Source: Bacillus bingmayongensis
GTDB taxonomy: Bacteria > Bacillota > Bacilli > Bacillales > Bacillaceae_G
Length of the DNA stretch: 64,000 nt
Direction: 5' to 3'
Assembly: GCF_000299035.1 (NCBI RefSeq)
Contig: NZ_JH921518.1
Span: forward strand, 346,439 to 410,438
A program made the position numbers and the translations under genes. This document shows positions 34,995 to 57,201 of this stretch, piece after piece. The notes beneath the pieces are model-generated. The model was not told the origin of the DNA, did no database searches, and was given only the letters and a program-made list of their open reading frames with translations. Position 1 is the stretch's first letter, and each line of letters starts with the position of its first letter.

Positions 34995-35230
34995 TTGCTT
35001 CTCTCCTTACAAGTCGATAACATGATATACGTCGTCTAACATGTAATTTTGTGTACAATGCACAAAGACAAACTATAATTTTCATATTATTCCGATTTGT
35101 TTTTTTAGTATAAATAAATATACACCTTTTCTATTGTAAAAGTAGCGCAGACATTTCGCAATGAAAATTATAAAAAATATTGCATTTTTATTTATTAATT
35201 AACAAAACAAGTAAAAAGCCCTAAAAAAAA

Positions 35231-35262
35231 GAAACAGTTGAGCAAAATTGTTCAACTGTTTC
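35231..35262 (-). terminator. terminator downstream of the sfa-side remnant
   Basis: Perfect 11-bp stem gaaacagttga / tcaactgtttc, with A-run on the plus strand (U-run on the minus-strand RNA). Confidence 0.75.
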
Positions 35263-35285
35263 TCTTTTTATCATTTCACGACCTA

Positions 35286-35378
35286 CTTATTGATTATGCA
35301 CTTCTTTTTCTTCTTCAATTAAAACATTTAGTATATACGTATATTGTTTTACAAACTCAATATATGTAACAAGCGATC
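35286..35378 (-). pseudogene. C-terminal remnant of an unidentified gene downstream of sfaC
   Basis: The minus-strand frame reads NRSLVTYIEFVKQYTYILNV then LIEEEKEVHNQ and stops, with no start codon and stops just upstream. The helical, charged end followed by a terminator suggests the tail of a lost gene. The family is not recognised. Confidence 0.35.
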
Positions 35379-35427
35379 GATTGATGAGAGTTCACAATTA
35401 TTTGGGGTCACGAATCAAAATTTCACT

Positions 35428-36525
35428 TTATAGAACAAGCACTTTTTGTAACACATCATCTAATACATATTGTTTGTGTACAAGTGAAGAAACCATACCG
35501 CTTTGCATCCCGCTATATGCTGGAAGAAACGTAATTATATCGCCTACTCGATATGTCTCACTATCTGTTATATCAATGATTAAATGATCACTACTTCCGC
35601 CAAGAATCTCGATATGCCCATCAAGTGGATATAGCCCACTAATATCAAGATCTTGTCGGCCAATCGCAACAATAGCTCGCAATCGTTCTCCTTTTTCTTC
35701 AAAACATGGAACTTGACCGAAAGCGTTTTTTCCAATCACACCTCTAGGCATCGAGGGCTTTCTTTTAACCTCAATAATCTCAGCTTCTACTGAAAATATA
35801 TCTTGGTACATAAAAGGAATGTTCTTCCCATATGCTGTTTCTTTTCCAAGAAAAATAGCTTCACCAATACGAAGAGAATTGACACGCCCTATTTCTTTCC
35901 TTTGTAAGATAAGCGGTAGGGAACTGGAGTTTCCACCCGAAATAATGGAAAGTGGCTGCGCGATTTTTTCTTCCACTAGCTCAGTCAATCGTGTTAACTC
36001 TAGCAAAGAAGATTCAGTTGGAATCACACCGCTAAAACAAGTAAAATTAGCTCCAATACCAACAAGCTCTATTCCCTGTATCCCCACTACTCTTTGGGCA
36101 ATCTCCACCATTTGCACAGGCAACATACCTTCGCGAAGGTCTCCTAAATCTACCATTAAAATGACCCGATGTATTTTCCCATATTTCGTCGCAGCCCTTC
36201 CCAATGCCTCAATCACGCAGAGTTCAGAATTCAAACTTATATCAGCAGTTATAACCGTCTCCTCTACTTCTGATAAAGCTGGTGTTCTAATTAAAAGAAG
36301 TTCCGCACTGTTTCCCACCATTTCACGGATTTTATGAAGATGCTGTAATCTTGAATCTGCAAATTTTGTAAATCCAGCTTCTTTCAAAATTTCGATTACT
36401 TCTGTTGCAGCACTTACTCCTTTTGTAACTGGAAAACATGAAACATTTGCATGCTCACATAATCGTTTTATCATAATGGCATTATGCTTTAATTTTGAAA
36501 GGTTTATTTTCATGATGGGCCGCAT
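35428..36525 (-). CDS. sfaC: PLP-dependent amino acid racemase, SfaC-like (probable ornithine racemase)
   Basis: 365 residues from ATG 36525, which follows GTAGGAGGAATA; an upstream ATG at 36546 lacks a site. Alanine-racemase fold III: the PLP lysine is in CFPVTKGVSA near residue 34, LMVDLGDLREGM and GIGANFTCFSG follow, and ISGGNSSSLP carries the phosphate contacts. It resembles the ornithine racemase/SfaC group. SfaC of Staphylococcus is thought to supply D-ornithine for staphyloferrin A. It is the third gene of the leftward sfaABC-type operon. Confidence 0.8.
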   Translation of the reverse strand: MRPIMKINLSKLKHNAIMIKRLCEHANVSCFPVTKGVSAATEVIEILKEAGFTKFADSRLQHLHKIREMVGNSAELLLIRTPALSEVEETVITADISLNSELCVIEALGRAATKYGKIHRVILMVDLGDLREGMLPVQMVEIAQRVVGIQGIELVGIGANFTCFSGVIPTESSLLELTRLTELVEEKIAQPLSIISGGNSSSLPLILQRKEIGRVNSLRIGEAIFLGKETAYGKNIPFMYQDIFSVEAEIIEVKRKPSMPRGVIGKNAFGQVPCFEEKGERLRAIVAIGRQDLDISGLYPLDGHIEILGGSSDHLIIDITDSETYRVGDIITFLPAYSGMQSGMVSSLVHKQYVLDDVLQKVLVL

Positions 36526-36536
36526 TTTTATTCCTC

Positions 36537-38336
36537 CTACATACAAAGCGGATTAGCAAAATTTGTATATAAATACAATTTTGCTTGATCATGTATTCTC
36601 ATCGAAAATAATGCCTTAGTCTCAATAAAAGGTGCAAATATTGCTGCTCGTTGCTCTTCTGTTACATCTACCATAAACTCTTCCACCACAGCTGCAACAA
36701 TTCTCCATAACTCTTTTTCCTGTATATCATCAACTGCTCGAGCCAATGTAAATAGCAAATCCCCAAAATGATTTTGCAATACAGAATGAATAAACTTGTT
36801 ATATACTTCAGTCATATTCTCTGTAAATAATGCTGCTTCTTTCATAACCGAGAGGTCTATCAATTCCGCCAATTTCTCTTTATAAATTCTTACTCCACCA
36901 AGATCACGAATGAGAATACGTTGTACTTCACCATTTTTTGTCACAATAATAGAATTTTGCATATGTCCTTCTAGAGCAATCCCATATCGTAAAACAAGTT
37001 CTAATAATGGCAACATCACTTTCTCAGTGTAATGAGTAATATAATAGAATATCTCTTTTTTACCGATATCCTCTTTGTCAAAATATGTACGCATTATATC
37101 TAAAATGACAGGTTCATTTTCTTTTAATGGATTATTGGCTGTTAAACTTGCACCAACCCATAATAATTCTCCTTCTCTTCTATACTGATTGGGATCTTCC
37201 CGTAAAATAAATGCTAAATTACGTCCTAAATCCCTAGTATTCGGTTTAGAAAAATAGGCTCCTACTCGTTCCCTTACAACAACAATAGACTGCTCTAAAT
37301 TTTGTTCCTTTGTATAGATGCCATCTAATACTGTTGATAATAGTGGGCCATTTACTGTAATTTCTGGTGACACGGTACGAACTGCACTCGTTGCTTGCGC
37401 TCGCACTGGAAGTTTCACGTGATATGGTAATTTTAATACATTCATTGTTCGAAATGATAATGTTGCACGTGAAGATAGTTGATATGGCACTGGAATAATC
37501 CATCCCTCTTCTAACTCTGAACCATATTCTTCTTGTAATACATGTTCATACTGCCATGGGTGAATGAGAAATGGATAATAATCTTCCATTCTTTTTTCTT
37601 TATTTACAAGTAATGTGTGTACTGCTTCGTATAACTCTGGTGAATTTTCATATATAAGTGATTTCTGCATATGATCTCCCGTTACTTCAGCTACTTCTTT
37701 ATGAACGAGAAGAACATGTAACGGAACAACATGTTCAAATTCTGGTGCATACAACTTCACTTCTTCTCTTGATAAACCGAGTTTCGTTTTCGTAGATGGG
37801 TGAAGCGGATGTCCCTCAATAACAAGTGATTCCGTATAAGTAAGCTCATCAAATGGTATACATGTTTGTAAGACTTTTAACAATTGATATAAATTATTAG
37901 GCTTTGTTTTTGTTATAAACAAAACGTTTGTCTCTAATTGTTGTTTCACCCATTCTTGTTTCCGATCCCATGCTTCATATGCTAGCGCTAAATTGGTTAC
38001 ACTGTTTTCCAGTTCTTCTTGTAAAGACTGTGAAATATGGATACGAAAGAACGGAGCAACTTCTTCCCAAAACATTGACAATGAATCAATCCACCGTATA
38101 TGTCCACGAACTTTAAAACGAATTGGGAATATAAACTCGTATCGTTCAAACGCTCCCTCTTGTTTTACTTCTAACAATAATTCCACATCGTTCATACTAT
38201 CTACAATCTCTATGCCATGCTCATGTTTCAATATCGCACAGTTCTCTTGTAGCACTTTCTCCCGAATCAATGCATTGCAAAAACGATTTAAAATACTACG
38301 TTCTGCTTTTACTCTATTAACTTGTTTTCTTTGCAT
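36537..38336 (-). CDS. sfaB: NRPS-independent siderophore synthetase (IucA/IucC), SfaB-like
   Basis: 599 residues from ATG 38336 (GAAGGAA upstream), overlapping the exporter gene by 20 bp. IucA/IucC marks are VIEGHPLHPSTKTKLG, the ATP-binding SSRATLSFRTMNV and HPWQYEHVL near residue 265, and the C-terminal FhuF-like part with EGHMQNSIIV and LIRDLGGVRI. The family adenylates citrate and condenses it with an amine. By order and size it corresponds to SfaB, which adds the second citrate in staphyloferrin A. Product identity is inferred from synteny. Confidence 0.85.
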   Translation of the reverse strand: MQRKQVNRVKAERSILNRFCNALIREKVLQENCAILKHEHGIEIVDSMNDVELLLEVKQEGAFERYEFIFPIRFKVRGHIRWIDSLSMFWEEVAPFFRIHISQSLQEELENSVTNLALAYEAWDRKQEWVKQQLETNVLFITKTKPNNLYQLLKVLQTCIPFDELTYTESLVIEGHPLHPSTKTKLGLSREEVKLYAPEFEHVVPLHVLLVHKEVAEVTGDHMQKSLIYENSPELYEAVHTLLVNKEKRMEDYYPFLIHPWQYEHVLQEEYGSELEEGWIIPVPYQLSSRATLSFRTMNVLKLPYHVKLPVRAQATSAVRTVSPEITVNGPLLSTVLDGIYTKEQNLEQSIVVVRERVGAYFSKPNTRDLGRNLAFILREDPNQYRREGELLWVGASLTANNPLKENEPVILDIMRTYFDKEDIGKKEIFYYITHYTEKVMLPLLELVLRYGIALEGHMQNSIIVTKNGEVQRILIRDLGGVRIYKEKLAELIDLSVMKEAALFTENMTEVYNKFIHSVLQNHFGDLLFTLARAVDDIQEKELWRIVAAVVEEFMVDVTEEQRAAIFAPFIETKALFSMRIHDQAKLYLYTNFANPLCM

Positions 38337-39519
38337 GGACAAATTCCTTCACCTTTCCTTTTTGCTGTTTCAGTTTTATAAATTGAAATAATAACGGGAC
38401 CATACATACAACTCCCATTAAAATAAATGTTTGAGCAATACCAACATATTCAATGGAATAACTAACTAAAATAGAACCAAGTGGTATCATCCCTCGATCC
38501 ATCAGTACTACACTAAGCATAAGTCCCCTCTCTTCTTCACGGACATGATGCTGAAAATAGACACGGTTACTTGATCGTAATAACTGACCAAATAGACCAA
38601 TAGAAAATAAAAGAATAAAAAATACATATGTATTACTAACAATCAGTAGTGCTAAAGAAATTGAAAATGCAATTAAGCTAACATAATACAGACGTACTTC
38701 TGAAATATATGTCAATGCTTTTGGAAGAATCACAGTAGCTATAATCGCACCAATTGCAGCTGATGACATAGCGATTCCAAAAACTTCTGCTTTTCCCGTA
38801 AATTGCTTTGAAACAAGCGCTGGTAAAACCGATGTATAGGAAAAACCAAAAGCCATTGTAATAAGTGACATCACAAAGATATTTCTTCCCATTTTGTCAT
38901 AAGAAAAATAAGCAGCAATTTGTTCCCAACTCGCTTTTTTCTTTTCTTTTCGTTTTTTCATTGGTTGATCTTTCATTGGTATCACAAGAATCCAAGCAAT
39001 AAGTGAACAAACAGCCTGCATCATAAATGTTAATTCGATATGCCCTGCTGCAATAAGAAATCCTGCTAATGCCGGGCCAGTTGATCGACAAACATTCATG
39101 AAAAATGAATGCATGGAAATCAGTTTGCTAATTTGATTATTTGTATCAATATCTGAAAGAAGTGTATTTCGGTTTGGTGTTTCTAATGCACTAATGATCC
39201 CACGAATAAATGAAAAAAGTAAAAAAATAAAATATGAAGGAGTAACTAAAGCAACATAAACCGCAAGTAAAGTTGTCAATACAAATCCCCATAAGGAATA
39301 TGATTTCATTAATTTGACACGTGGATACAAATCACAAAGCTTTCCTGCATACACACTAAATAATACGATTGGAATGAGTCGTACAAAGTTTAACCATCCT
39401 AAATATGTCGCGCTATGGTACAAATCATAGACATACCAATTAATAGCAGTCATTCCGAGCCAATTCCCCATAAACAAAAAAAATGAACTACCAAAAAACA
39501 GTTTTCGAATAAGAATCAC
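38317..39519 (-). CDS. sfaA: MFS exporter, SfaA-like (probable siderophore efflux)
   Basis: About 400 residues with twelve hydrophobic segments and the MFS loop YAGKLCDLYPRVKLMKSYSL. Start is unsettled: the open frame reaches ATG 39582, but that codon has no ribosome binding site and would place the Fur-box-like sequence inside the gene. I use GTG 39519. An AGGTGATT site there would actually be best spaced for a rare ATT start at 39510. In the staphyloferrin A locus the first gene is the MFS exporter SfaA, followed by sfaB and sfaC, as here. Confidence 0.8.
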   Translation of the reverse strand: MILIRKLFFGSSFFLFMGNWLGMTAINWYVYDLYHSATYLGWLNFVRLIPIVLFSVYAGKLCDLYPRVKLMKSYSLWGFVLTTLLAVYVALVTPSYFIFLLFSFIRGIISALETPNRNTLLSDIDTNNQISKLISMHSFFMNVCRSTGPALAGFLIAAGHIELTFMMQAVCSLIAWILVIPMKDQPMKKRKEKKKASWEQIAAYFSYDKMGRNIFVMSLITMAFGFSYTSVLPALVSKQFTGKAEVFGIAMSSAAIGAIIATVILPKALTYISEVRLYYVSLIAFSISLALLIVSNTYVFFILLFSIGLFGQLLRSSNRVYFQHHVREEERGLMLSVVLMDRGMIPLGSILVSYSIEYVGIAQTFILMGVVCMVPLLFQFIKLKQQKGKVKEFVHAKKTS

Positions 39520-39560
39520 CTCGAATTTTTTGTTGCATTTTTTAATCCAATCTTTATAAT

Positions 39561-39575
39561 TGAAATTGATTATCA
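39561..39575. promoter_or_regulatory. Fur-box-like operator between sfaA and sfaD
   Basis: TGAAATTGATTATCA, two mismatches from the 7-1-7 consensus TGATAATNATTATCA, in the short divergent region of the two siderophore arms. It implies iron repression; binding is not demonstrated. Confidence 0.6.
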
Positions 39576-39647
39576 TCATCATTGTAAGGACAATATAAAA
39601 TATTCTCTCTTTTTTGTAAAGAGCTAAAATTGAGAAAGGTGGTTTCT

Positions 39648-41627
39648 ATGAACTTACACAGCATTCATTCATTTGAGGTAGAAGAACAAACATTATTTTC
39701 TTTTTTACAGCAAAACCATCCACCGCTACATGAAATATATAAACAAAATTTATATAAAGGTCGGAACGGTATATTAGAACGACTACTATCTTCTGTCATC
39801 CGAGAAAATATAAGCAATCTAATGGATACTGTGGTGACATTTCAAAGGTCAACTAAAACGTTTGTTTCTATTTCAGCGTACCGTTGTCCAGATTATTTAC
39901 TAGATTATATACATATACACCAGAAGAGTTTTGAAAAATCTTCCATAATACACGCTTTATATTTTAAGAATCAAGACTGCTACTTACTCGTACCAGTTCA
40001 ACAAGTGTATGCTTTCGAGCGTCCAATTGTAAACGGGCCATACATGCTCATATCACCATCTGAGCAAAAAGAAATTACACATCCAAACGAAGTATTAGCT
40101 TTAATTTTCCAAGAAGGTTGGGAAGGACTATCTTCTTATTTTCATATGTTCGAAGAGGATTTAGCTAATAGTGCTGCTAATTTATCGCTTGCCTATACAT
40201 TTCATGAACAGTCTACTGAGGTATCAACATTAGAAGCAGCTGCGCAAACAGATGATCATTATGCTTTTTTTGAACAGCTTGTTATTGAAGGACACCCTTG
40301 TCATCCTGGAGCAAAAATGCGAAAAGGTTTAAACCCTGAAGAAACAATTGCGTATTCAGCAGAGTTTAAAAATACGATTCCACTTCGATTTGTAGCCGTT
40401 CATAACAAAGAAGTAAGTACTGCGTTTATGAAATCACAAGATTGGAATCCTATCATCTTTTCGTTCGAGCCTGTACTGAAAGCCGAGGCTAAGGTTAGGC
40501 TAGATGATAGAATAGATGATTATCTTCTATTACCTATCCATCCTTGGCAAACGATTCATACATTGCAAGAGTTATACAAAACAGAAATTGAACAGAAAAA
40601 AATCATTATTTTTGATTATGAGGCGCCTTATGTAGCTGGTATGTCATTTCGTACCATTTTCCCAGCACAGTATGATACAAGAAGACCTCATTATAAGTTA
40701 ACAACGAATGTTCATTTAACAGGTGAAGTGCGAACCTTATCAGAACAAACGATTCATAACGGCCCACTGATGAGCAATATATTACAAAAAATTATGAAAG
40801 CAGATACAAGTATCGATGAAAGAAGATTTATTCCGATTATGGAACGTGCTGGCGCACATTTTCTCAGCACAAATGACTCTAATATAGATATGCAAACTTT
40901 GAGAAGTGAAAATCTTGCATGTGTCATTCGTGATAATGTGTACTCCTATATTAATAAAGACGAATGGGCTATTGTCGGTTCTGCTCTCGTTGCATCTGCA
41001 CACGGAGCGAATCAACCACTTATTGTTGAACTTATCGAACTATATAAAGTAAAGCATTGTCTACCATTACATGATGCAATCGTTTCATTTATTGAAAAAT
41101 ATGTAGCCAACGCTTTAACTGGATTTATTCCACTTATGGTGAAGTACGGAATTGGCTTAGAGGGCCACTTGCAAAATACAGTACCTGTCTTTAAAAAAGA
41201 TGGCACACCAGACCGACTTCTTGTTCGTGATTGGGAAGGCATTCGTGTTCACCGTGGTCGTTTACAACAGGCAGGGATTGACATTACAAACTTCCATCAC
41301 AAATCACGCATTTTAGTTGATGATGAAAAGAGTGTACGAAACAAGGTATTTTACTCCGTTATGCAAAATCACTTTGGAGAGTTATTTATTCATGTAAGCC
41401 GTTTCTATAACATAGACGAACAATTGCTTTGGAATATTGTAAAACGAGTCACAAAAAATATCTTTTTAGATTTACAACAAGACTCACACTATACAAAAAA
41501 CGCAACAACTGATTATGATATCTTCTTTGCAGAAAAGGTAGACTATAAAGCCCTGACGCTAATGCGAATGATGGGAGAAGCTCACTCCTATTTTTATGTA
41601 AAAGTCGATAATCCATTGTATAAATAA
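39648..41627 (+). CDS. sfaD: NRPS-independent siderophore synthetase (IucA/IucC), SfaD-like
   Basis: 659 residues from ATG 39648 (AAAGGTGG upstream; the frame opens at 39630). Family blocks: VIEGHPCHPGAKMRKGL near residue 215, HPWQTIHTLQEL, GMSFRTIFPAQ, and in the C-terminal part EGHLQNTVPV and LVRDWEGIRVHRGR. In Staphylococcus SfaD makes the first amide between D-ornithine and citrate, and its gene diverges from sfaABC exactly as here. The two synthetases are clearly paralogs. No siderophore ABC importer (HtsABC type) is in the window. Confidence 0.87.
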   Translation: MNLHSIHSFEVEEQTLFSFLQQNHPPLHEIYKQNLYKGRNGILERLLSSVIRENISNLMDTVVTFQRSTKTFVSISAYRCPDYLLDYIHIHQKSFEKSSIIHALYFKNQDCYLLVPVQQVYAFERPIVNGPYMLISPSEQKEITHPNEVLALIFQEGWEGLSSYFHMFEEDLANSAANLSLAYTFHEQSTEVSTLEAAAQTDDHYAFFEQLVIEGHPCHPGAKMRKGLNPEETIAYSAEFKNTIPLRFVAVHNKEVSTAFMKSQDWNPIIFSFEPVLKAEAKVRLDDRIDDYLLLPIHPWQTIHTLQELYKTEIEQKKIIIFDYEAPYVAGMSFRTIFPAQYDTRRPHYKLTTNVHLTGEVRTLSEQTIHNGPLMSNILQKIMKADTSIDERRFIPIMERAGAHFLSTNDSNIDMQTLRSENLACVIRDNVYSYINKDEWAIVGSALVASAHGANQPLIVELIELYKVKHCLPLHDAIVSFIEKYVANALTGFIPLMVKYGIGLEGHLQNTVPVFKKDGTPDRLLVRDWEGIRVHRGRLQQAGIDITNFHHKSRILVDDEKSVRNKVFYSVMQNHFGELFIHVSRFYNIDEQLLWNIVKRVTKNIFLDLQQDSHYTKNATTDYDIFFAEKVDYKALTLMRMMGEAHSYFYVKVDNPLYK

Positions 41628-41632
41628 CAAAA

Positions 41633-41672
41633 AACCCTTCTTTTCTCATTAGAGTGAAGAAGGATTTTCTTT
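41633..41672 (+). terminator. terminator of sfaD
   Basis: Imperfect stem aacccttcttttctc / gagtgaagaaggatt with a short loop and T-rich tail. Confidence 0.7.
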
Positions 41673-41674
41673 GC

Positions 41675-41785
41675 TTAATGTACGAGATCTTTCTTTTTAA
41701 AATCATACAGGCTTAATATGAGAAAAGGTATAAAATATATCAATAATATACCAACTCCTAAAAGGACACTGTCATGATTTAATAT
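41675..41785 (-). other. possible small membrane ORF without a canonical start
   Basis: A frame ending at 41675 encodes one long hydrophobic helix, VLLGVGILLIYFIPFLILSL, then YDFKKKDLVH. AGGAG lies just upstream, but the nearest codons are ATA and TTA, so the start codon may have been lost. It resembles a small membrane protein or a transporter tail. Confidence 0.35.
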
Positions 41786-41875
41786 ATTTCTCCTATTTCA
41801 AATTCAACTTATAACTTTCAAAAGTATCTTCCAAAAACATCGTCCTAAAATAATATGATTAGCTGCTTCACTTCA

Positions 41876-42766
41876 TCATTGCTGCAAAGCATCATACACA
41901 TATGGATCTTTTGGCTTTTCCGTTTTTTCTACTTTACTAACTTTTACAAGTGGAAACAGTACCCCTTTATACGTCGTTTCATCTAATGTCCCTGTAACTT
42001 TCACCCACGTCTCTTCTGGAAAAGTGTTTATTTCATTTCCAGAAACAATCATCCCCCAAACAGAAGCATCGGCAACACAACATGTAATGCCGTACCGAGC
42101 AACTACTATTTTATCCCCTTTCACTTCTTTATCATTATAGGTAAACCCTGTAAACGTAATTTGTTTTCCTTTAAACCCGAGAACGTCTTGACCAATTATA
42201 TTCATCGTTTGAATGTAATTTTTATCATCCACCTGTATGGTCTTTTGTTTTATTATGTTTCTTTCTAATTCTTCTGGTGACTGCTCTGATGCGGGAAGAT
42301 TTTGAATCGGTTCTTCTTCTTTGTCAACTAATAACTCCCTCCAATCGGGATTGACCTGTTTCGTTTGTGGTACTTTCTGCTCTACACTCTTTGCCTGTGC
42401 ACTCTGATTCATTCCTCTGTTTGATGCGAGACTACCATCAATCGTTACGTTCGAGAATAAAAATGCACTAACAATAGGAATAAGAAATAGGGAGTATAAC
42501 AGAAAAACACCCATTTTTGATTTCGGCGCTGTATGATGCTCACAACAATGACAGGCATTTTGTTTCTCTTTACCATTTTTCCATACTTGTAAACATCCAA
42601 GAAGAAGTGACACTGCAAATGCTACATATGTAAACTTTATCATTTTAGGTGCAATGAAGTGATCAATATTCCCTGTTACAAGAAGTTTAAATAAAAGCAT
42701 TGCAAAACCAATTAAAATGATGCCGCGAATGTAACTATGGAATTTTCTTTGTTCATGATTACGCAT
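41876..42766 (-). CDS. YcgQ/TIGR03943-type permease accessory protein
   Basis: 296 residues with about four N-terminal membrane segments. A cysteine/histidine cluster CHCCEHHTAP near residue 73 may bind metal, and a soluble C-terminal domain has GFTYNDKEVKGDKIVVARYG then ITCCVAD. The family occurs beside YcgR-type permeases. It is 16 bp downstream of that gene and shares the Zur-box region with the YciC gene, pointing to zinc metabolism. Confidence 0.8.
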   Translation of the reverse strand: MRNHEQRKFHSYIRGIILIGFAMLLFKLLVTGNIDHFIAPKMIKFTYVAFAVSLLLGCLQVWKNGKEKQNACHCCEHHTAPKSKMGVFLLYSLFLIPIVSAFLFSNVTIDGSLASNRGMNQSAQAKSVEQKVPQTKQVNPDWRELLVDKEEEPIQNLPASEQSPEELERNIIKQKTIQVDDKNYIQTMNIIGQDVLGFKGKQITFTGFTYNDKEVKGDKIVVARYGITCCVADASVWGMIVSGNEINTFPEETWVKVTGTLDETTYKGVLFPLVKVSKVEKTEKPKDPYVYDALQQ

Positions 42767-47407: not shown

Positions 47408-47578
47408 CTATGCACGAATATCGGCATATTTCTCAATGTCCCTATACTCTTTTTCTAGTTCCTCTAAGGAAAGCTCGTATAATTGTCGGTCGAGAACTTT
47501 AAACACACCTGCCCCAATTAACTGATCAATTAACTGCCTCTTACGATTTTCAACAGCAAAACGGAGTTGACTACTCAT
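47408..47578 (-). CDS. fbpA: FbpA-type small Fur-regulated basic protein
   Basis: 56 residues; start ATG 47578. The pattern QLRFAVENRKRQLIDQLIG then GVFKVLDRQLYELSLEELE matches the FbpA family. In B. subtilis Fbp proteins help the sRNA FsrA in the iron-sparing response. A Fur-box-like sequence lies 35 bp upstream, in agreement with iron control. Confidence 0.82.
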   Translation of the reverse strand: MSSQLRFAVENRKRQLIDQLIGAGVFKVLDRQLYELSLEELEKEYRDIEKYADIRA

Positions 47579-47612
47579 CTTTAAAAAAACTCCTTTCTAC
47601 AATAATTGAAAA

Positions 47613-47627
47613 TGATAATCTCTATCA
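47613..47627. promoter_or_regulatory. Fur-box-like operator of fbpA
   Basis: TGATAATCTCTATCA, two mismatches from TGATAATNATTATCA; the flanking ttgaaaatgataat extends the similarity to a longer overlapping box. Confidence 0.65.
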
Positions 47628-47770: not shown

Positions 47771-48224
47771 TCATACTTTGCAAAGTAGTTCTTTATGGAT
47801 AGATTCTACTTCTACTTGGATCGTAACATGATCTGCATGAAACCTTTCCTTCAACAAACACGTCGCTTCTGCTAATACACCTTGTGTCTCCTCACCTTTT
47901 TCTATCACAAGATGACACATTAAAACTTGAAAATCCGATGTAATCGACCATATGTGTAAGTCATGTACCTCTTTTACAATTGCAATGTTTAATAATGTAT
48001 CTTTCACTTGTTCTACATCAATACGTTGTGTTGTACCTTCCATCAATACATGAACGGTATCACGCGTTACACGCCAGCCACTTATAATGACTAATATAGA
48101 AACGAGTATACTTGCAATTGGATCGGCAGCCGTCCAGCCAAAACATTTAATAAATAACGCAGCAATAATTACCCCCAATAACCTCAGCAATCATTAACTC
48201 TTTTTTATTTTGTGAATGTCCCAT
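47771..48224 (-). pseudogene. cation diffusion facilitator (CzcD-like) gene, internally deleted and frameshifted
   Basis: The original start (ATG 48224, GGGGATCT upstream) reads GHSQNKKELMIAEVIGG in one frame, then stops. A second frame supplies the end of the protein from 48190: the last membrane helices (LGVIIAALFIKCFGW, DPIASILVSILVIISGW) and the cytoplasmic CDF domain (VHDLHIWSITSDFQVLMCHL). About half of a normal 300-residue CDF exporter is missing between them. The complete C-terminal domain could still fold if made, but no proper start serves it. Confidence 0.8.
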
Positions 48225-53581: not shown

Positions 53582-54703
53582 ATGAGGGTACAAGAGGTTC
53601 TCATAGGGAATAACAACAAAAGATACATATTACTGGATCAAGAAGGATTCCCTGTAATGCCAGTTATGAAATATATAAAGTATTTAGATAAGACAGGAAA
53701 AAGACCTAATACTCAAAAAACATATTGTTATTCCTTAAAACATTTTTATACCTACTTAGAAGAAACAAACAAAGATTACAAGTTTATTAGATTAGAAGAT
53801 TTAGTTGACTTTGTGGGGTGGTTAAGAAGCCCCTATCAGAGTTCAAATGTCACTCCTCTTCAAAAAAAGAAAGCAAAGCGAACGGAAAAAACAATTAACC
53901 ATACAATTACCGTTATAGCAAACTTCTATGACTACCTCTACCGAAATGAAGAAGTACAAAATGACATGATGGAAAAGTTAATGAAGCAAGTATTTACAGG
54001 AGGATACTCACGTTACAAAAGTTTTTTACACCATGTTAATAGGGACAAGCCATCAAACAGAAACATATTGAAGTTAAAAGAACCACGCAAAAGAGTAGAA
54101 ACCCTCACAAAAGAACAAGTACAACAAGTATTACAAGCAACTACTAATATACGAGATAAATTCTTAATTCAGCTGTTATTTGAAACGGGATTGCGTATTG
54201 GAGAAGCTCTCTCTCTTTTCATGGAGGATTTTGTTTATGACCATAAAAAAGGGCATCGGATTCGTTTGGTGGAACGAGGGGAATTAGAAAACGGTGCGAT
54301 GTTAAAAACAGGAGAACGTGAAATTTATGTATCACCATCCTTAATGGATTTATATGATGATTACTTGTATGAAGTGCTTGATGAATTAGAATTGGATTCA
54401 AACTTTGTTTTTGTAAAACTGAGAGGAAAAGATGTGGGAAAACCAATGGAATATTGGAACGTTGAGTCTCTATTTAAGCGTTTAAAAAAGAAAACAGAGA
54501 TAAGCCTACATCCTCACCTATTTCGTCATACACACGCTACAATTTTCTACCAGAAAACAAAGGATATTAAGCAAGTACAAGAACGATTAGGACATTCTCA
54601 AATTCAAACAACAATGAACCTATACCTACATCCTTCGGATGAAGATATTAGAGAAGATTGGAATAAAGCACAGTCCGAATTTAGCATAAATAAAAATAAT
54701 TGA
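53582..54703 (+). CDS. tnpA: Tn554-type transposase A (tyrosine recombinase)
   Basis: 373 residues, close to the 361 of Tn554 TnpA. N-terminal SAM-like core-binding domain (about 20-130), catalytic domain about 165-365 with Arg in ETGLRIGEALSLF, HPHLFRHTHA (His-x-x-Arg), LGHSQIQTTMNLYLH holding the His and the nucleophilic Tyr. The protein is a site-specific recombinase acting with TnpB. It starts the three-gene transposition operon; 13 bp separate it from tnpB. Confidence 0.9.
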   Translation: MRVQEVLIGNNNKRYILLDQEGFPVMPVMKYIKYLDKTGKRPNTQKTYCYSLKHFYTYLEETNKDYKFIRLEDLVDFVGWLRSPYQSSNVTPLQKKKAKRTEKTINHTITVIANFYDYLYRNEEVQNDMMEKLMKQVFTGGYSRYKSFLHHVNRDKPSNRNILKLKEPRKRVETLTKEQVQQVLQATTNIRDKFLIQLLFETGLRIGEALSLFMEDFVYDHKKGHRIRLVERGELENGAMLKTGEREIYVSPSLMDLYDDYLYEVLDELELDSNFVFVKLRGKDVGKPMEYWNVESLFKRLKKKTEISLHPHLFRHTHATIFYQKTKDIKQVQERLGHSQIQTTMNLYLHPSDEDIREDWNKAQSEFSINKNN

Positions 54704-54716
54704 GAGGAATTATTGC

Positions 54717-56828
54717 ATGAAACAAATCAAAAATGTTCAGGTAGAAGAAATAGGCTTTCATGAAGGCTTACAAAGAGAACTTTCAACATATCCTGAAAAA
54801 ACAGTACATGAAGATGGTTCTGTTTCAATTGAACAAGTAACCAATCCCTATTTCTTAGTTAATGACAAATGGAATATCAACGTTGTAGGTGAAATCAAGC
54901 AGTTCGAAGAAGTGGTAGCACACTATAATTATTCCAGTAAAAATATTTACTTTCGACTTAATAATCCTTCTCTCAATTTAGAAGTGAAATATGTTTATTA
55001 TCAGCAATTGTTTAATGATTTATGGACAATCAAGTATATATTTAGCGCTCAAAGTCCATTAAAAAGAATGACAGAGTTCATAAACGCAAAATACCCCAAA
55101 ATATCATCCTTTTTGAATTTGGATATTGAAAAAGCAGAACGAGAATATGTCTTTTGGTTGAATAAAAAGGGAGTCAAAACTTATTACACTAAAAAACATA
55201 AAGATTGTAAAGATAGTTATATGAAAACCACAATAGCAAGCTTTTTAAGAATCGTTTATACTACATTAATCCAATTCACTGATAAGAGAGATGAATGGGA
55301 AAAAGACAAATGGGATGTTCGTATTTTACACGATAAATATAGTATTGAATACAATAAAAGTACGAATGCCTTTCATATTGATTTCTCAAAGATTGATAAA
55401 ATGGTTCGTGGACAAGTAAAAAAATATATTAAACAACGATTGGTCAGTAAGAATAAGTTTTCAGTGGGGACAGCACAAAGCTATCTAAAATACATACCAA
55501 AGTTTTTTACCTTTATATTTTCATTGGAACCAACATGGAAGGATTTAAGAACTCTAAAAAGAACACATATTGAAAAGTACATCGAACATTTACATGAATA
55601 CGCTAATAATAATTTGAAAAAACGTAACGCCCACCCTGCAAGTTATGTTATGCAATCGCTGTCTTGTATACAAAAATTCCTTGCAGATATTCAACGGTAT
55701 AAGTACGATATGGCTCCCGAAGCTAATGTACGATTATTAATTTTTCCTGAAGATAAACCAAAGTTAAGAAAAAAGTCAATTGAACAAATTGACTATATTC
55801 CCGACTATGTATTAGAGCAACTCTTTACTCATATTGATGACTTGCATAAAGAAGTTGTCCCTCTCGTTTGGATTGCGTTTAAAACAGGGCTTAGAATTTC
55901 TGATGCATTAGGTTTAACCTCTGATTGTTTAGTAAAACTAAATGGTCAATACTCTATTGAAACCGATATTGAGAAAACATATGTAAAAGGACATCGAATT
56001 CCGATTGACAATGAATTAGCAGATATTCTTGCGGTTCTTATCGAGAAATCAAAAAAACTTAGCAATCAAGACAACAACCCCAAAGGGTATATTTTCGTTC
56101 GTTATCGTGGCCGACGGAAAGGAAAACCTTTTGGTCAACACTTTATAGGAAGACAATTAAATATATTAGCAAATCAAAAAAACATCACTAATGAAAATGG
56201 GGATCTTTTCCGTTTTAAAGCCCACCAGTTCCGACATACTTATGCAGTAAAGATGTTGAACGGTGGTGCGGATATTCTTACGGTACAAGAGTTATTAGCA
56301 CACTCATCCCCTGAAATGACATTAAGGTATGCCAAACTATTAGATAATACGAAAAGAAAAGCCTTTGAATCGGTCATAAAGCAAGGTGTTTTTATCTTTG
56401 ACTTAAATGGTGAAGTACAAGAAATTAAATCAGGAGAAGATATTCCAACAGACATATTGGATGCCTTATGGCAAGACCACAAGCTCAATGCGATGGACAA
56501 CCCTTATGGAACGTGTCACGCTCGTCTGAACGGAAATTGCCCTCATATGGAAGCACCACCCTGCCTAACTTGTGGTGACAATCAAACGCCATGTAAAGAC
56601 CTAGCAGTAGGTTTTTCGGAATTAGATAAGGAAAAATATGAACTTCACATTAAAACAACCATAAAAGCTATTGAAATAGCAAAACAAAGGGGTCGAGAAG
56701 ATATAGCCGAGAAAAACGAAAAGAATTTACAACGTTATCAAAACATTTTCAATACCCTACAGGAAGGAAATATTATCTTTGGTAGGCAAGAGCGGATGAA
56801 AAGAAAGTTAGGTGTTAAAAATGGCTGA
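54717..56828 (+). CDS. tnpB: Tn554-type transposase B (tyrosine recombinase)
   Basis: 703 residues, somewhat longer than the 630 of Tn554 TnpB. A long N-terminal region precedes a tyrosine recombinase domain (about 360-560) with TGLRISDALGL, HQFRHTYAVKML and LLAHSSPEMTLRYAKL. A C-terminal cysteine-rich patch (CHARLNGNCPHMEAPPCLTC followed by GDNQTPC, about 601-627) looks zinc binding. Overlaps tnpC by 8 bp. Confidence 0.9.
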   Translation: MKQIKNVQVEEIGFHEGLQRELSTYPEKTVHEDGSVSIEQVTNPYFLVNDKWNINVVGEIKQFEEVVAHYNYSSKNIYFRLNNPSLNLEVKYVYYQQLFNDLWTIKYIFSAQSPLKRMTEFINAKYPKISSFLNLDIEKAEREYVFWLNKKGVKTYYTKKHKDCKDSYMKTTIASFLRIVYTTLIQFTDKRDEWEKDKWDVRILHDKYSIEYNKSTNAFHIDFSKIDKMVRGQVKKYIKQRLVSKNKFSVGTAQSYLKYIPKFFTFIFSLEPTWKDLRTLKRTHIEKYIEHLHEYANNNLKKRNAHPASYVMQSLSCIQKFLADIQRYKYDMAPEANVRLLIFPEDKPKLRKKSIEQIDYIPDYVLEQLFTHIDDLHKEVVPLVWIAFKTGLRISDALGLTSDCLVKLNGQYSIETDIEKTYVKGHRIPIDNELADILAVLIEKSKKLSNQDNNPKGYIFVRYRGRRKGKPFGQHFIGRQLNILANQKNITNENGDLFRFKAHQFRHTYAVKMLNGGADILTVQELLAHSSPEMTLRYAKLLDNTKRKAFESVIKQGVFIFDLNGEVQEIKSGEDIPTDILDALWQDHKLNAMDNPYGTCHARLNGNCPHMEAPPCLTCGDNQTPCKDLAVGFSELDKEKYELHIKTTIKAIEIAKQRGREDIAEKNEKNLQRYQNIFNTLQEGNIIFGRQERMKRKLGVKNG

Positions 56829-57201
56829 ATATGACCGTTCTGCACATTTGAAAGCGATTCATGCCAAACGAAAAGCAAATACCCTTCAGCGAGTAGATGA
56901 AGCTATTAAAAGGCTTTTAAAAGCGAATGAAAAAATTAATTTTAACAGTGTATCCAATGAAGCTGATGTATCAAAAGCAACGCTTTATAACAACAAGGGC
57001 TTTCGTTCGAGAATTGAAACATTACGAAATCAACAGTCACAAGTGCCTACACCGAAACAAGTAAAGCGAGAAATGAATGAAAGTAACAAGGATACCCTGA
57101 TCGCTTCCCTAAAAAGGAAAAATAAGAAATTGGAAGATGAAAACAAGCAATTAAAAGAGCAACTGAAAGTAGCTTACGCAGACGTATATAAGAAGTTATA
57201 G
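56821..57201 (+). CDS. tnpC: Tn554-type TnpC accessory protein (DUF6262-like)
   Basis: 126 residues from ATG 56821, preferred over GTG 56812 because TTAGGTG precedes it. Basic N-terminus with a helix-turn-helix-like stretch FNSVSNEADVSKATLYNNKG, then a C-terminal coiled coil (KRKNKKLEDENKQLKEQL). In Tn554, TnpC is not essential but affects orientation and frequency of insertion. It overlaps the end of tnpB, so translation is coupled. Confidence 0.85.
   Translation: MAEYDRSAHLKAIHAKRKANTLQRVDEAIKRLLKANEKINFNSVSNEADVSKATLYNNKGFRSRIETLRNQQSQVPTPKQVKREMNESNKDTLIASLKRKNKKLEDENKQLKEQLKVAYADVYKKL

What the first reader, a model, noticed from the sequence alone, without database searches (positions are those of the whole stretch)
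35428..41627. Staphyloferrin A-like siderophore locus in a Bacillus cereus group genome
Seen: two IucA/IucC synthetases, an MFS exporter and an alanine/ornithine racemase-type PLP enzyme, ordered sfaD | sfaA-sfaB-sfaC with the same divergent geometry, overlaps and relative sizes as the staphylococcal locus. Known: SfaD and SfaB join two citrates to D-ornithine, SfaC supplies D-ornithine and SfaA exports. The group is known for petrobactin and bacillibactin, not staphyloferrin A. Inference: this strain may make a citrate-ornithine or related carboxylate siderophore. No cognate HtsABC importer is present here, so uptake would use another system.
Basis: partly seen in the sequence, partly recalled or inferred. 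Interest (0 to 1): 0.85.

Follow-up and report, generated by a model that had tools for sequence, protein, structure and literature searches.

The report
Staphyloferrin A-type locus outside Staphylococcus
The stretch holds the four genes that staphylococci use to make and export the iron-scavenging molecule staphyloferrin A, in what looks like a Bacillus-type genome, with an iron-control switch but without the usual uptake genes next door; it is a genuine but fairly ordinary relative of a known system that shows the system is not confined to staphylococci.

Summary
Window 35428-41627 carries sfaD | sfaA-sfaB-sfaC: two IucA/IucC synthetases, an MFS exporter and an ornithine-racemase-like enzyme, all open. 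The 16 named Staphylococcus loci fetched have the same order, each followed by three Hts-like genes, which the window lacks. Both synthetases group with staphylococcal SfaD and SfaB, not with Sbn paralogues; nine residues are shared by the 16 SfaD rows aligned and absent from 47 other synthetases. The divergent promoter region holds the window's only strong double Fur box, absent from 60 shuffles. Three unnamed Bacilli genomes carry the locus with Hts-like genes, and Fictibacillus aquaticus a shorter form; these are closer to the window than Staphylococcus is, so a recent transfer from Staphylococcus is unlikely. Most likely it makes, exports and Fur-controls staphyloferrin A or a close citrate-ornithine relative, with the receptor elsewhere or absent. 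Not settled: the organism. 'Bacillus cereus group' is unverified: no near-identical genome turned up among the Bacilli sampled, and no B. cereus-group locus among the 17 from the named collection. Product chemistry is inferred, not shown. New member of a known kind.

The parts
35428..36525 (-). sfaC-like PLP enzyme (ornithine racemase-like), 365 aa from ATG 36525
   Evidence: Ala_racemase_N; NCBIfam Orr 393 bits, below its 480 cut-off; 53% to Fictibacillus, 47% to G092, 32-34% to five Staphylococcus SfaC; K35 invariant in the eight rows
36537..38336 (-). sfaB-like NIS synthetase (listed ORF starts at TTG 38342)
   Evidence: IucA_IucC and FhuF domains; clade with Staphylococcus SfaB; 21 of 40 B-type versus 6 D-type residues
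38317..39510 (-). sfaA-like MFS exporter, 397 aa if it starts at ATT 39510 (listed ORF starts at 39582)
   Evidence: MFS_1/MFS_3; 40-47% to five Staphylococcus SfaA, 26-29% to two tandem-cluster MFS; ATT aligns with the first Met of two of those five ORFs and follows GAGGTGAT
39561..39581 (.). double overlapping 7-1-7 Fur box in the sfaA-sfaD intergenic region
   Evidence: two motifs, 2 mismatches each, offset 6; only such pair in the window, 0 in 60 dinucleotide shuffles; double arrangement also in L062, L013, L103 and L104
39592..39620 (-). promoter-like TTTACA-17-TATATT for sfaABC
   Evidence: one of two sites with 10 of 12 matches in 35100-41900; the number of promoter-like sites there is at chance level (29 against 28.8), so this rests on position
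39648..41627 (+). sfaD-like NIS synthetase, 659 aa
   Evidence: IucA_IucC and FhuF domains; clade with Staphylococcus SfaD, SH-aLRT 99 and 100; 27 of 40 D-type versus 5 B-type residues
35230..35263 (+). terminator-like hairpin downstream of sfaC, with A/T runs on both sides
   Evidence: 15-pair stem; number of terminator-like sites not above shuffles (2 against 3.0)

Best explanation
A Fur-controlled staphyloferrin A-type locus. Under iron starvation Fur leaves the shared sfaA-sfaD promoter region. SfaC turns L-ornithine into D-ornithine; SfaD joins a first citrate to the delta-amine; SfaB joins a second citrate to the alpha-amine; SfaA exports the product. Uptake of the ferric complex uses an Hts-like or other receptor elsewhere in the genome. 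Shown: intact genes, grouping of the two synthetases with SfaD and SfaB, conserved order, Fur motif, no Hts-like genes in the window. Inferred: substrates, product, export, iron control, uptake.
For: Same four-gene order in 16 of 16 named Staphylococcus loci. Window SfaD lies in a clade made only of racemase-linked SfaD rows (21 rows at 99; 16 rows at 100), apart from tandem-cluster and Sbn synthetases (SbnC and SbnF labels confirmed over cut-off for L077 and L078). Window SfaB lies in the SfaB clade (99). In 40 columns that separate staphylococcal SfaD from SfaB, window SfaD is 27 D-type/5 B-type and window SfaB 21 B-type/6 D-type. E360, E366, G331, K226, P81, F106, H550, K552, Y633 are in every SfaD row with a letter there (16 rows, one partial) and in 0 of 47 other rows. 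The racemase matches the ornithine-racemase model at 393 bits, two Staphylococcus SfaC at 256 and 264. Double Fur box at the conserved place. Functions of SfaA-D and Hts in S. aureus: passages of PMC3996567 and PMC9598555.
Against: No Hts-like importer in the window, though three such genes follow sfaC in 16 of 16 named Staphylococcus loci. The Orr score is below the curated cut-off. SfaB is less diagnostic: three tandem-cluster proteins, two beside a decarboxylase gene, share its clade. The MFS of a decarboxylase cluster (L107) is closer to window SfaA (51%) than the sfa-locus SfaA proteins compared (40-47%). SfaD is only 33-39% identical to the named Staphylococcus SfaD, so a change of substrate is possible. 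P81 falls in a column mostly of gaps outside SfaD. The trees are quick ones with several long branches.
Confidence: 0.77

Rival explanations
1. A sister carboxylate siderophore: same logic, but another diamine or diamino acid (L-ornithine, lysine, diaminobutyrate) or another hydroxy acid.
For: SfaD is only 33-39% identical to named Staphylococcus SfaD; in related Bacilli clusters a decarboxylase gene stands where no racemase is found, in 7 of 12 tandem loci opened (decarboxylase domain confirmed by Pfam in L063, L064 and L068), so the amine source varies in this family; the racemase is below the Orr cut-off.
Against: The SfaD-only residues are kept in the window and in all racemase-linked SfaD rows aligned; no decarboxylase domain in the four locus proteins or the four neighbours scanned.
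Confidence: 0.18
2. A decaying or orphan locus: the product is not used by the cell because the importer is lost, or the genes are no longer expressed.
For: No Hts-like genes in the window; Fictibacillus, the nearest SfaD row, also has no Hts-like genes at the locus and no SfaA homologue at E<=1e-20 in its genome.
Against: All four frames are open, the 15 residues invariant across the 75 aligned synthetases are in both window proteins, and a double Fur box persists. The Fictibacillus genome holds one HtsA-like protein (35%) elsewhere, so a distant receptor is possible.
Confidence: 0.05

Closest known systems
Staphylococcal sfaABCD-htsABC (staphyloferrin A)
   Same: sfaD | sfaA-sfaB-sfaC order, synthetases in the same clades, racemase, exporter, Fur motif near the sfaD start in 15 of 16 named loci
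   Different: Hts-like genes missing from the window; SfaD 33-39% identical
Fictibacillus aquaticus locus (L005)
   Same: nearest named relative: SfaD 51%, SfaC 53%; also no Hts-like genes at the locus
   Different: no sfaA between sfaD and sfaB, no SfaA homologue at E<=1e-20 in that genome, no Fur motif at <=2 mismatches in the locus
Loci of unnamed Bacilli genomes: L103, L104, and L105/L106 (one genome, split over two contigs)
   Same: sfaD | sfaA-sfaB-sfaC with Fur motifs; in L105/L106 the order is read across two contigs
   Different: followed by three Hts-like genes
Tandem synthetase clusters, seven of 12 with an Orn/DAP-type decarboxylase (e.g. L063, L064, L107)
   Same: two related NIS synthetases, mostly with an MFS gene
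   Different: no racemase at E<=1e-15 in the stretches fetched, co-directional synthetases, most synthetases outside the Sfa clades
Petrobactin AsbB, staphyloferrin B SbnC/SbnF, FslA
   Same: IucA/IucC superfamily
   Different: SfaD 114 bits and SfaB 89 bits to AsbB; NCBIfam FslA 220-225 bits against a cut-off of 1000, SbnC/SbnF 100-128 against 700 and 900; Sbn rows outside the Sfa clades

Membership tests
staphyloferrin A biosynthetic locus (sfaABCD) | two NIS synthetases orthologous to SfaB and SfaD | tested here: met
staphyloferrin A biosynthetic locus (sfaABCD) | SfaC-type amino-acid racemase in the operon | tested here: met
   specificity for ornithine not tested, Orr score below cut-off
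staphyloferrin A biosynthetic locus (sfaABCD) | SfaA-type MFS exporter | tested here: met
   40-47% to five Staphylococcus SfaA; caveat: MFS of L107 51%
staphyloferrin A biosynthetic locus (sfaABCD) | divergent sfaD / sfaABC with a Fur site between | tested here: met
   a sequence motif, binding not tested
staphyloferrin A biosynthetic locus (sfaABCD) | product is dicitryl-D-ornithine | not testable with these tools
   needs LC-MS
sfa-hts biosynthesis and uptake locus | htsABC adjacent | tested here: not met
   six Hts-like queries against all window frames of 60 aa or more, E<=10, no hit
staphyloferrin B (sbn) | SbnC/SbnF-type synthetases | tested here: not met
   far below NCBIfam cut-offs, while L077/L078 controls pass them; outside those branches in the trees
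petrobactin (asb) | AsbA/AsbB-type synthetases | tested here: inconclusive
   AsbB is a distant match (114 and 89 bits); AsbA and AsbB were not rows in the trees
decarboxylase-linked tandem NIS cluster | Orn/DAP decarboxylase beside two co-directional synthetases | tested here: not met
   no PF02784 in the eight proteins scanned; synthetases are divergent
host in Bacillus cereus group | near-identity to a B. cereus-group genome | tested here: inconclusive
   no such genome could be identified among the unnamed ones; best listed match 76% over fumC

The most novel reading that the evidence does not exclude
Staphyloferrin A is an older siderophore of Bacilli rather than a staphylococcal invention: loci outside Staphylococcus are the more diverse stock and the staphylococcal locus one branch of it, with some lineages (window, Fictibacillus) keeping biosynthesis detached from the Hts-like importer, and sister clusters using a decarboxylase instead of a racemase to change the product.
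Probability: 0.35. Interest if true: 0.5.

Novelty: new member of a known kind. Interest (0 to 1): 0.4.

Why it matters
In the passages seen, staphyloferrin A is spoken of as a staphylococcal siderophore; orthologous, Fur-boxed loci in other Bacilli widen its likely producers, and the contrast between racemase-linked and other synthetases gives testable residues for amine choice in NIS enzymes. A locus without its importer also raises the question of which receptor takes the product up.

Tried and rejected
Host identity: no own genome. DNA searches of 398, 261, 249, 250 and 2 sampled genomes (samples overlap) gave 76% over fumC as the best listed match; the list was cut, searches listed only E<=1e-290, and searches had no hit and no positive control. 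Plasmid searches gave only distant or short matches, mostly Priestia, phages none. Solved-structure searches of fumC, a recombinase, a glycosyltransferase, a cupin regulator and a TetR regulator did not settle the species. G+C of 34.4% fits the B. cereus group but many others too.

Rejected: petrobactin AsbB, SbnC/SbnF, aerobactin or FslA synthetases as closest kin. Rejected as unlikely: recent transfer from Staphylococcus, because Fictibacillus and other non-staphylococcal rows are closer. Dead ends: three viral-contig scans without a relative; control genomes rang only in E. coli and Haloferax. No structure prediction was run.

Literature: searches (25 of 28 listed; 25 of 30; 8 of 9) showed no title or abstract start reporting a staphyloferrin A locus in the B. 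cereus group; two searches listed only 5 of 679 and 3 of 543 and show nothing. Passages only were seen of PMC10740426, PMC13293324, PMC9352062, PMC3996567, PMC9598555 and PMC11865118; the rest were listings.

Left out of counts: L015 from both trees and the residue tables (its locus is); in the second tree also L009, L011, L017-L021, L074, L003, L004 and L079. L081-L102 were fetched by searches but not studied, apart from four genomes among them (behind L086-L088 and L090) that were re-fetched with wider flanks.

Full report
What is there. The window carries four intact genes: a racemase-like PLP gene, an IucA/IucC synthetase and an MFS gene on the minus strand, and a second synthetase on the plus strand. 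Shine-Dalgarno sites read by eye move the starts to sfaC 36525, sfaB about 38336, sfaA 39510 (ATT) and sfaD 39648. The ATT aligns with the first Met of two of the five staphylococcal SfaA ORFs aligned and follows GAGGTGAT; the listed MFS start ATGATGATG overlaps the Fur box. An ATT start is inference.

More than chance. The one genome-contig scan, with an alignment of the two window synthetases, returned 17 loci: one Fictibacillus aquaticus (51% to SfaD) and 16 Staphylococcus (33-39%). In 16 of 16 Staphylococcus loci the order is sfaD | sfaA-sfaB-sfaC followed by three genes like those of L007, which Pfam calls a periplasmic-binding protein and two FecCD permeases and which by place match htsABC. 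The intergenic region of the window holds two overlapping 7-1-7 Fur motifs, 2 mismatches each; no other pair of that quality occurs in the 64 kb and none in 60 dinucleotide shuffles. Single motifs with up to 3 mismatches are at chance level (17 against 16.1), so only the pair and its place count. A motif with at most 2 mismatches lies near the sfaD start in 15 of 16 named Staphylococcus loci (not L010), in 1 of 3 unnamed loci of the staphylococcal clade, and in G092 (L062), but not in Fictibacillus.

Which synthetases. In a tree of 75 proteins window SfaD sits in a 21-row clade with 18 staphylococcal SfaD (15 named, 3 unnamed; L015 left out), Fictibacillus and G092 (SH-aLRT 99), nearest Fictibacillus (98); window SfaB sits in a 24-row clade with 18 staphylococcal SfaB, Fictibacillus, G092 and three tandem-cluster proteins (99); Sbn paralogues are outside (SbnC and SbnF labels confirmed). 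A second tree of 63 rows, with staphylococcal rows thinned, L003, L004 and L079 left out for their long branches and eight rows of four further genomes added, gives 100 and 99. Both are quick trees without bootstraps, with long branches flagged. In 40 columns that separate staphylococcal SfaD from SfaB, window SfaD matches D 27 and B 5 times, window SfaB matches B 21 and D 6 times; Sbn rows and most tandem rows are mixed. Nine residues, E360 and E366 among them, occur in every SfaD row with a letter there (16 rows, one partial) and in 0 of 47 other rows; E530 occurs in 16 of 16 SfaD and 0 of 24 tandem rows, but the seven Sbn-type rows have D or E there. E360 lies two residues before an arginine (R362) invariant in all 63 rows; that this loop binds citrate in AcsD is recalled.

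Racemase, exporter, importer. SfaC matches the ornithine racemase model at 393 bits (cut-off 480), more than two staphylococcal SfaC (256 and 264 bits). SfaA is 40-47% identical to five staphylococcal SfaA and 26-29% to two tandem-cluster MFS proteins, though the MFS of the decarboxylase cluster L107 reaches 51%. None of six Hts-like proteins from L007 and L062 finds anything in the window at E<=10.

Distribution. 42 of 398 sampled Bacilli genomes have an SfaD-like match at E<=1e-60 (three of them, G001, G004 and G005, were already known to), as have 26 of 211 and 3 of 212 in two order-level samples. These counts mix the kinds of cluster. Among loci opened, G679, G646 and G663 (4.5, 4.4 and 3.8 Mb, unnamed, outside the staphylococcal clade) carry sfaD | sfaA-sfaB-sfaC plus three Hts-like genes (G663 over two contigs); G092 and Fictibacillus lack sfaA at that place, and so does L076 of the staphylococcal clade. 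Of 12 tandem clusters opened, 0 have an SfaC match at E<=1e-15, 7 have a match to the decarboxylase of L064 and 5 have neither.

Mechanism. In S. aureus SfaD joins citrate to the delta-amine and SfaB to the alpha-amine of D-ornithine, SfaC is predicted to make D-ornithine, SfaA is the putative efflux pump and HtsABC the importer (passages of PMC3996567). A review gives mass 480 and Fur control (passages of PMC9598555; it names the delta-amine twice, against PMC3996567). The window should work alike; uptake must be elsewhere.

Host. The B. cereus group claim remains open. In one study the B. cereus isolates listed carried petrobactin and bacillibactin as their siderophore clusters (passages of PMC10740426). 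A single scan with two exact peptide patterns from the window returned no B. cereus-group locus, which may mean rarity, absence from the collection, or another host. Gene matches at 74-75% to Priestia plasmids suggest a Bacillus-type host, no more.

Change made on checking.

Verdict. A real, well-supported member of the staphyloferrin A locus family outside Staphylococcus; modestly interesting for its spread, the missing importer and the racemase/decarboxylase contrast.

Noticed in passing
L063, L064, L065, L066, L068, L073, L107: Tandem NIS synthetases with an Orn/DAP-type decarboxylase gene close by (six of the seven also with an MFS gene; none at threshold in L068), probably a different citrate-diamine siderophore (rhizoferrin-like by inference).
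   Followed up: partly
window 47607-47627: A second overlapping Fur-like pair (3 and 2 mismatches; such pairs average 0.13 per shuffle) just upstream of a small minus-strand ORF 47408-47578 that resembles Spo0E-like phosphatases (resemblance recalled).
   Followed up: partly
window 53582-57201: Two tyrosine recombinases and a small third ORF; related trios with a DUF6262 protein lie on Cytobacillus, Peribacillus and Priestia plasmids, Tn554-like by recall.
   Followed up: partly
window 47771-48190: Short ORF resembling the end of a cation-diffusion transporter, possibly a gene fragment (by eye).
   Followed up: no
window about 55719-56029: A 311-base stretch 84% identical to a plasmid record labelled Klebsiella grimontii (CP079755), within the recombinase region.
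   Followed up: no
L076 (G348): A staphylococcal-clade sfa locus with Hts-like genes but no sfaA between sfaD and sfaB.
   Followed up: no
L001 (Sodalis plasmid pSG1): Two IucA/IucC genes with an aldolase/citrate-lyase gene between; relatives of SbnF and SbnC below cut-off.
   Followed up: partly
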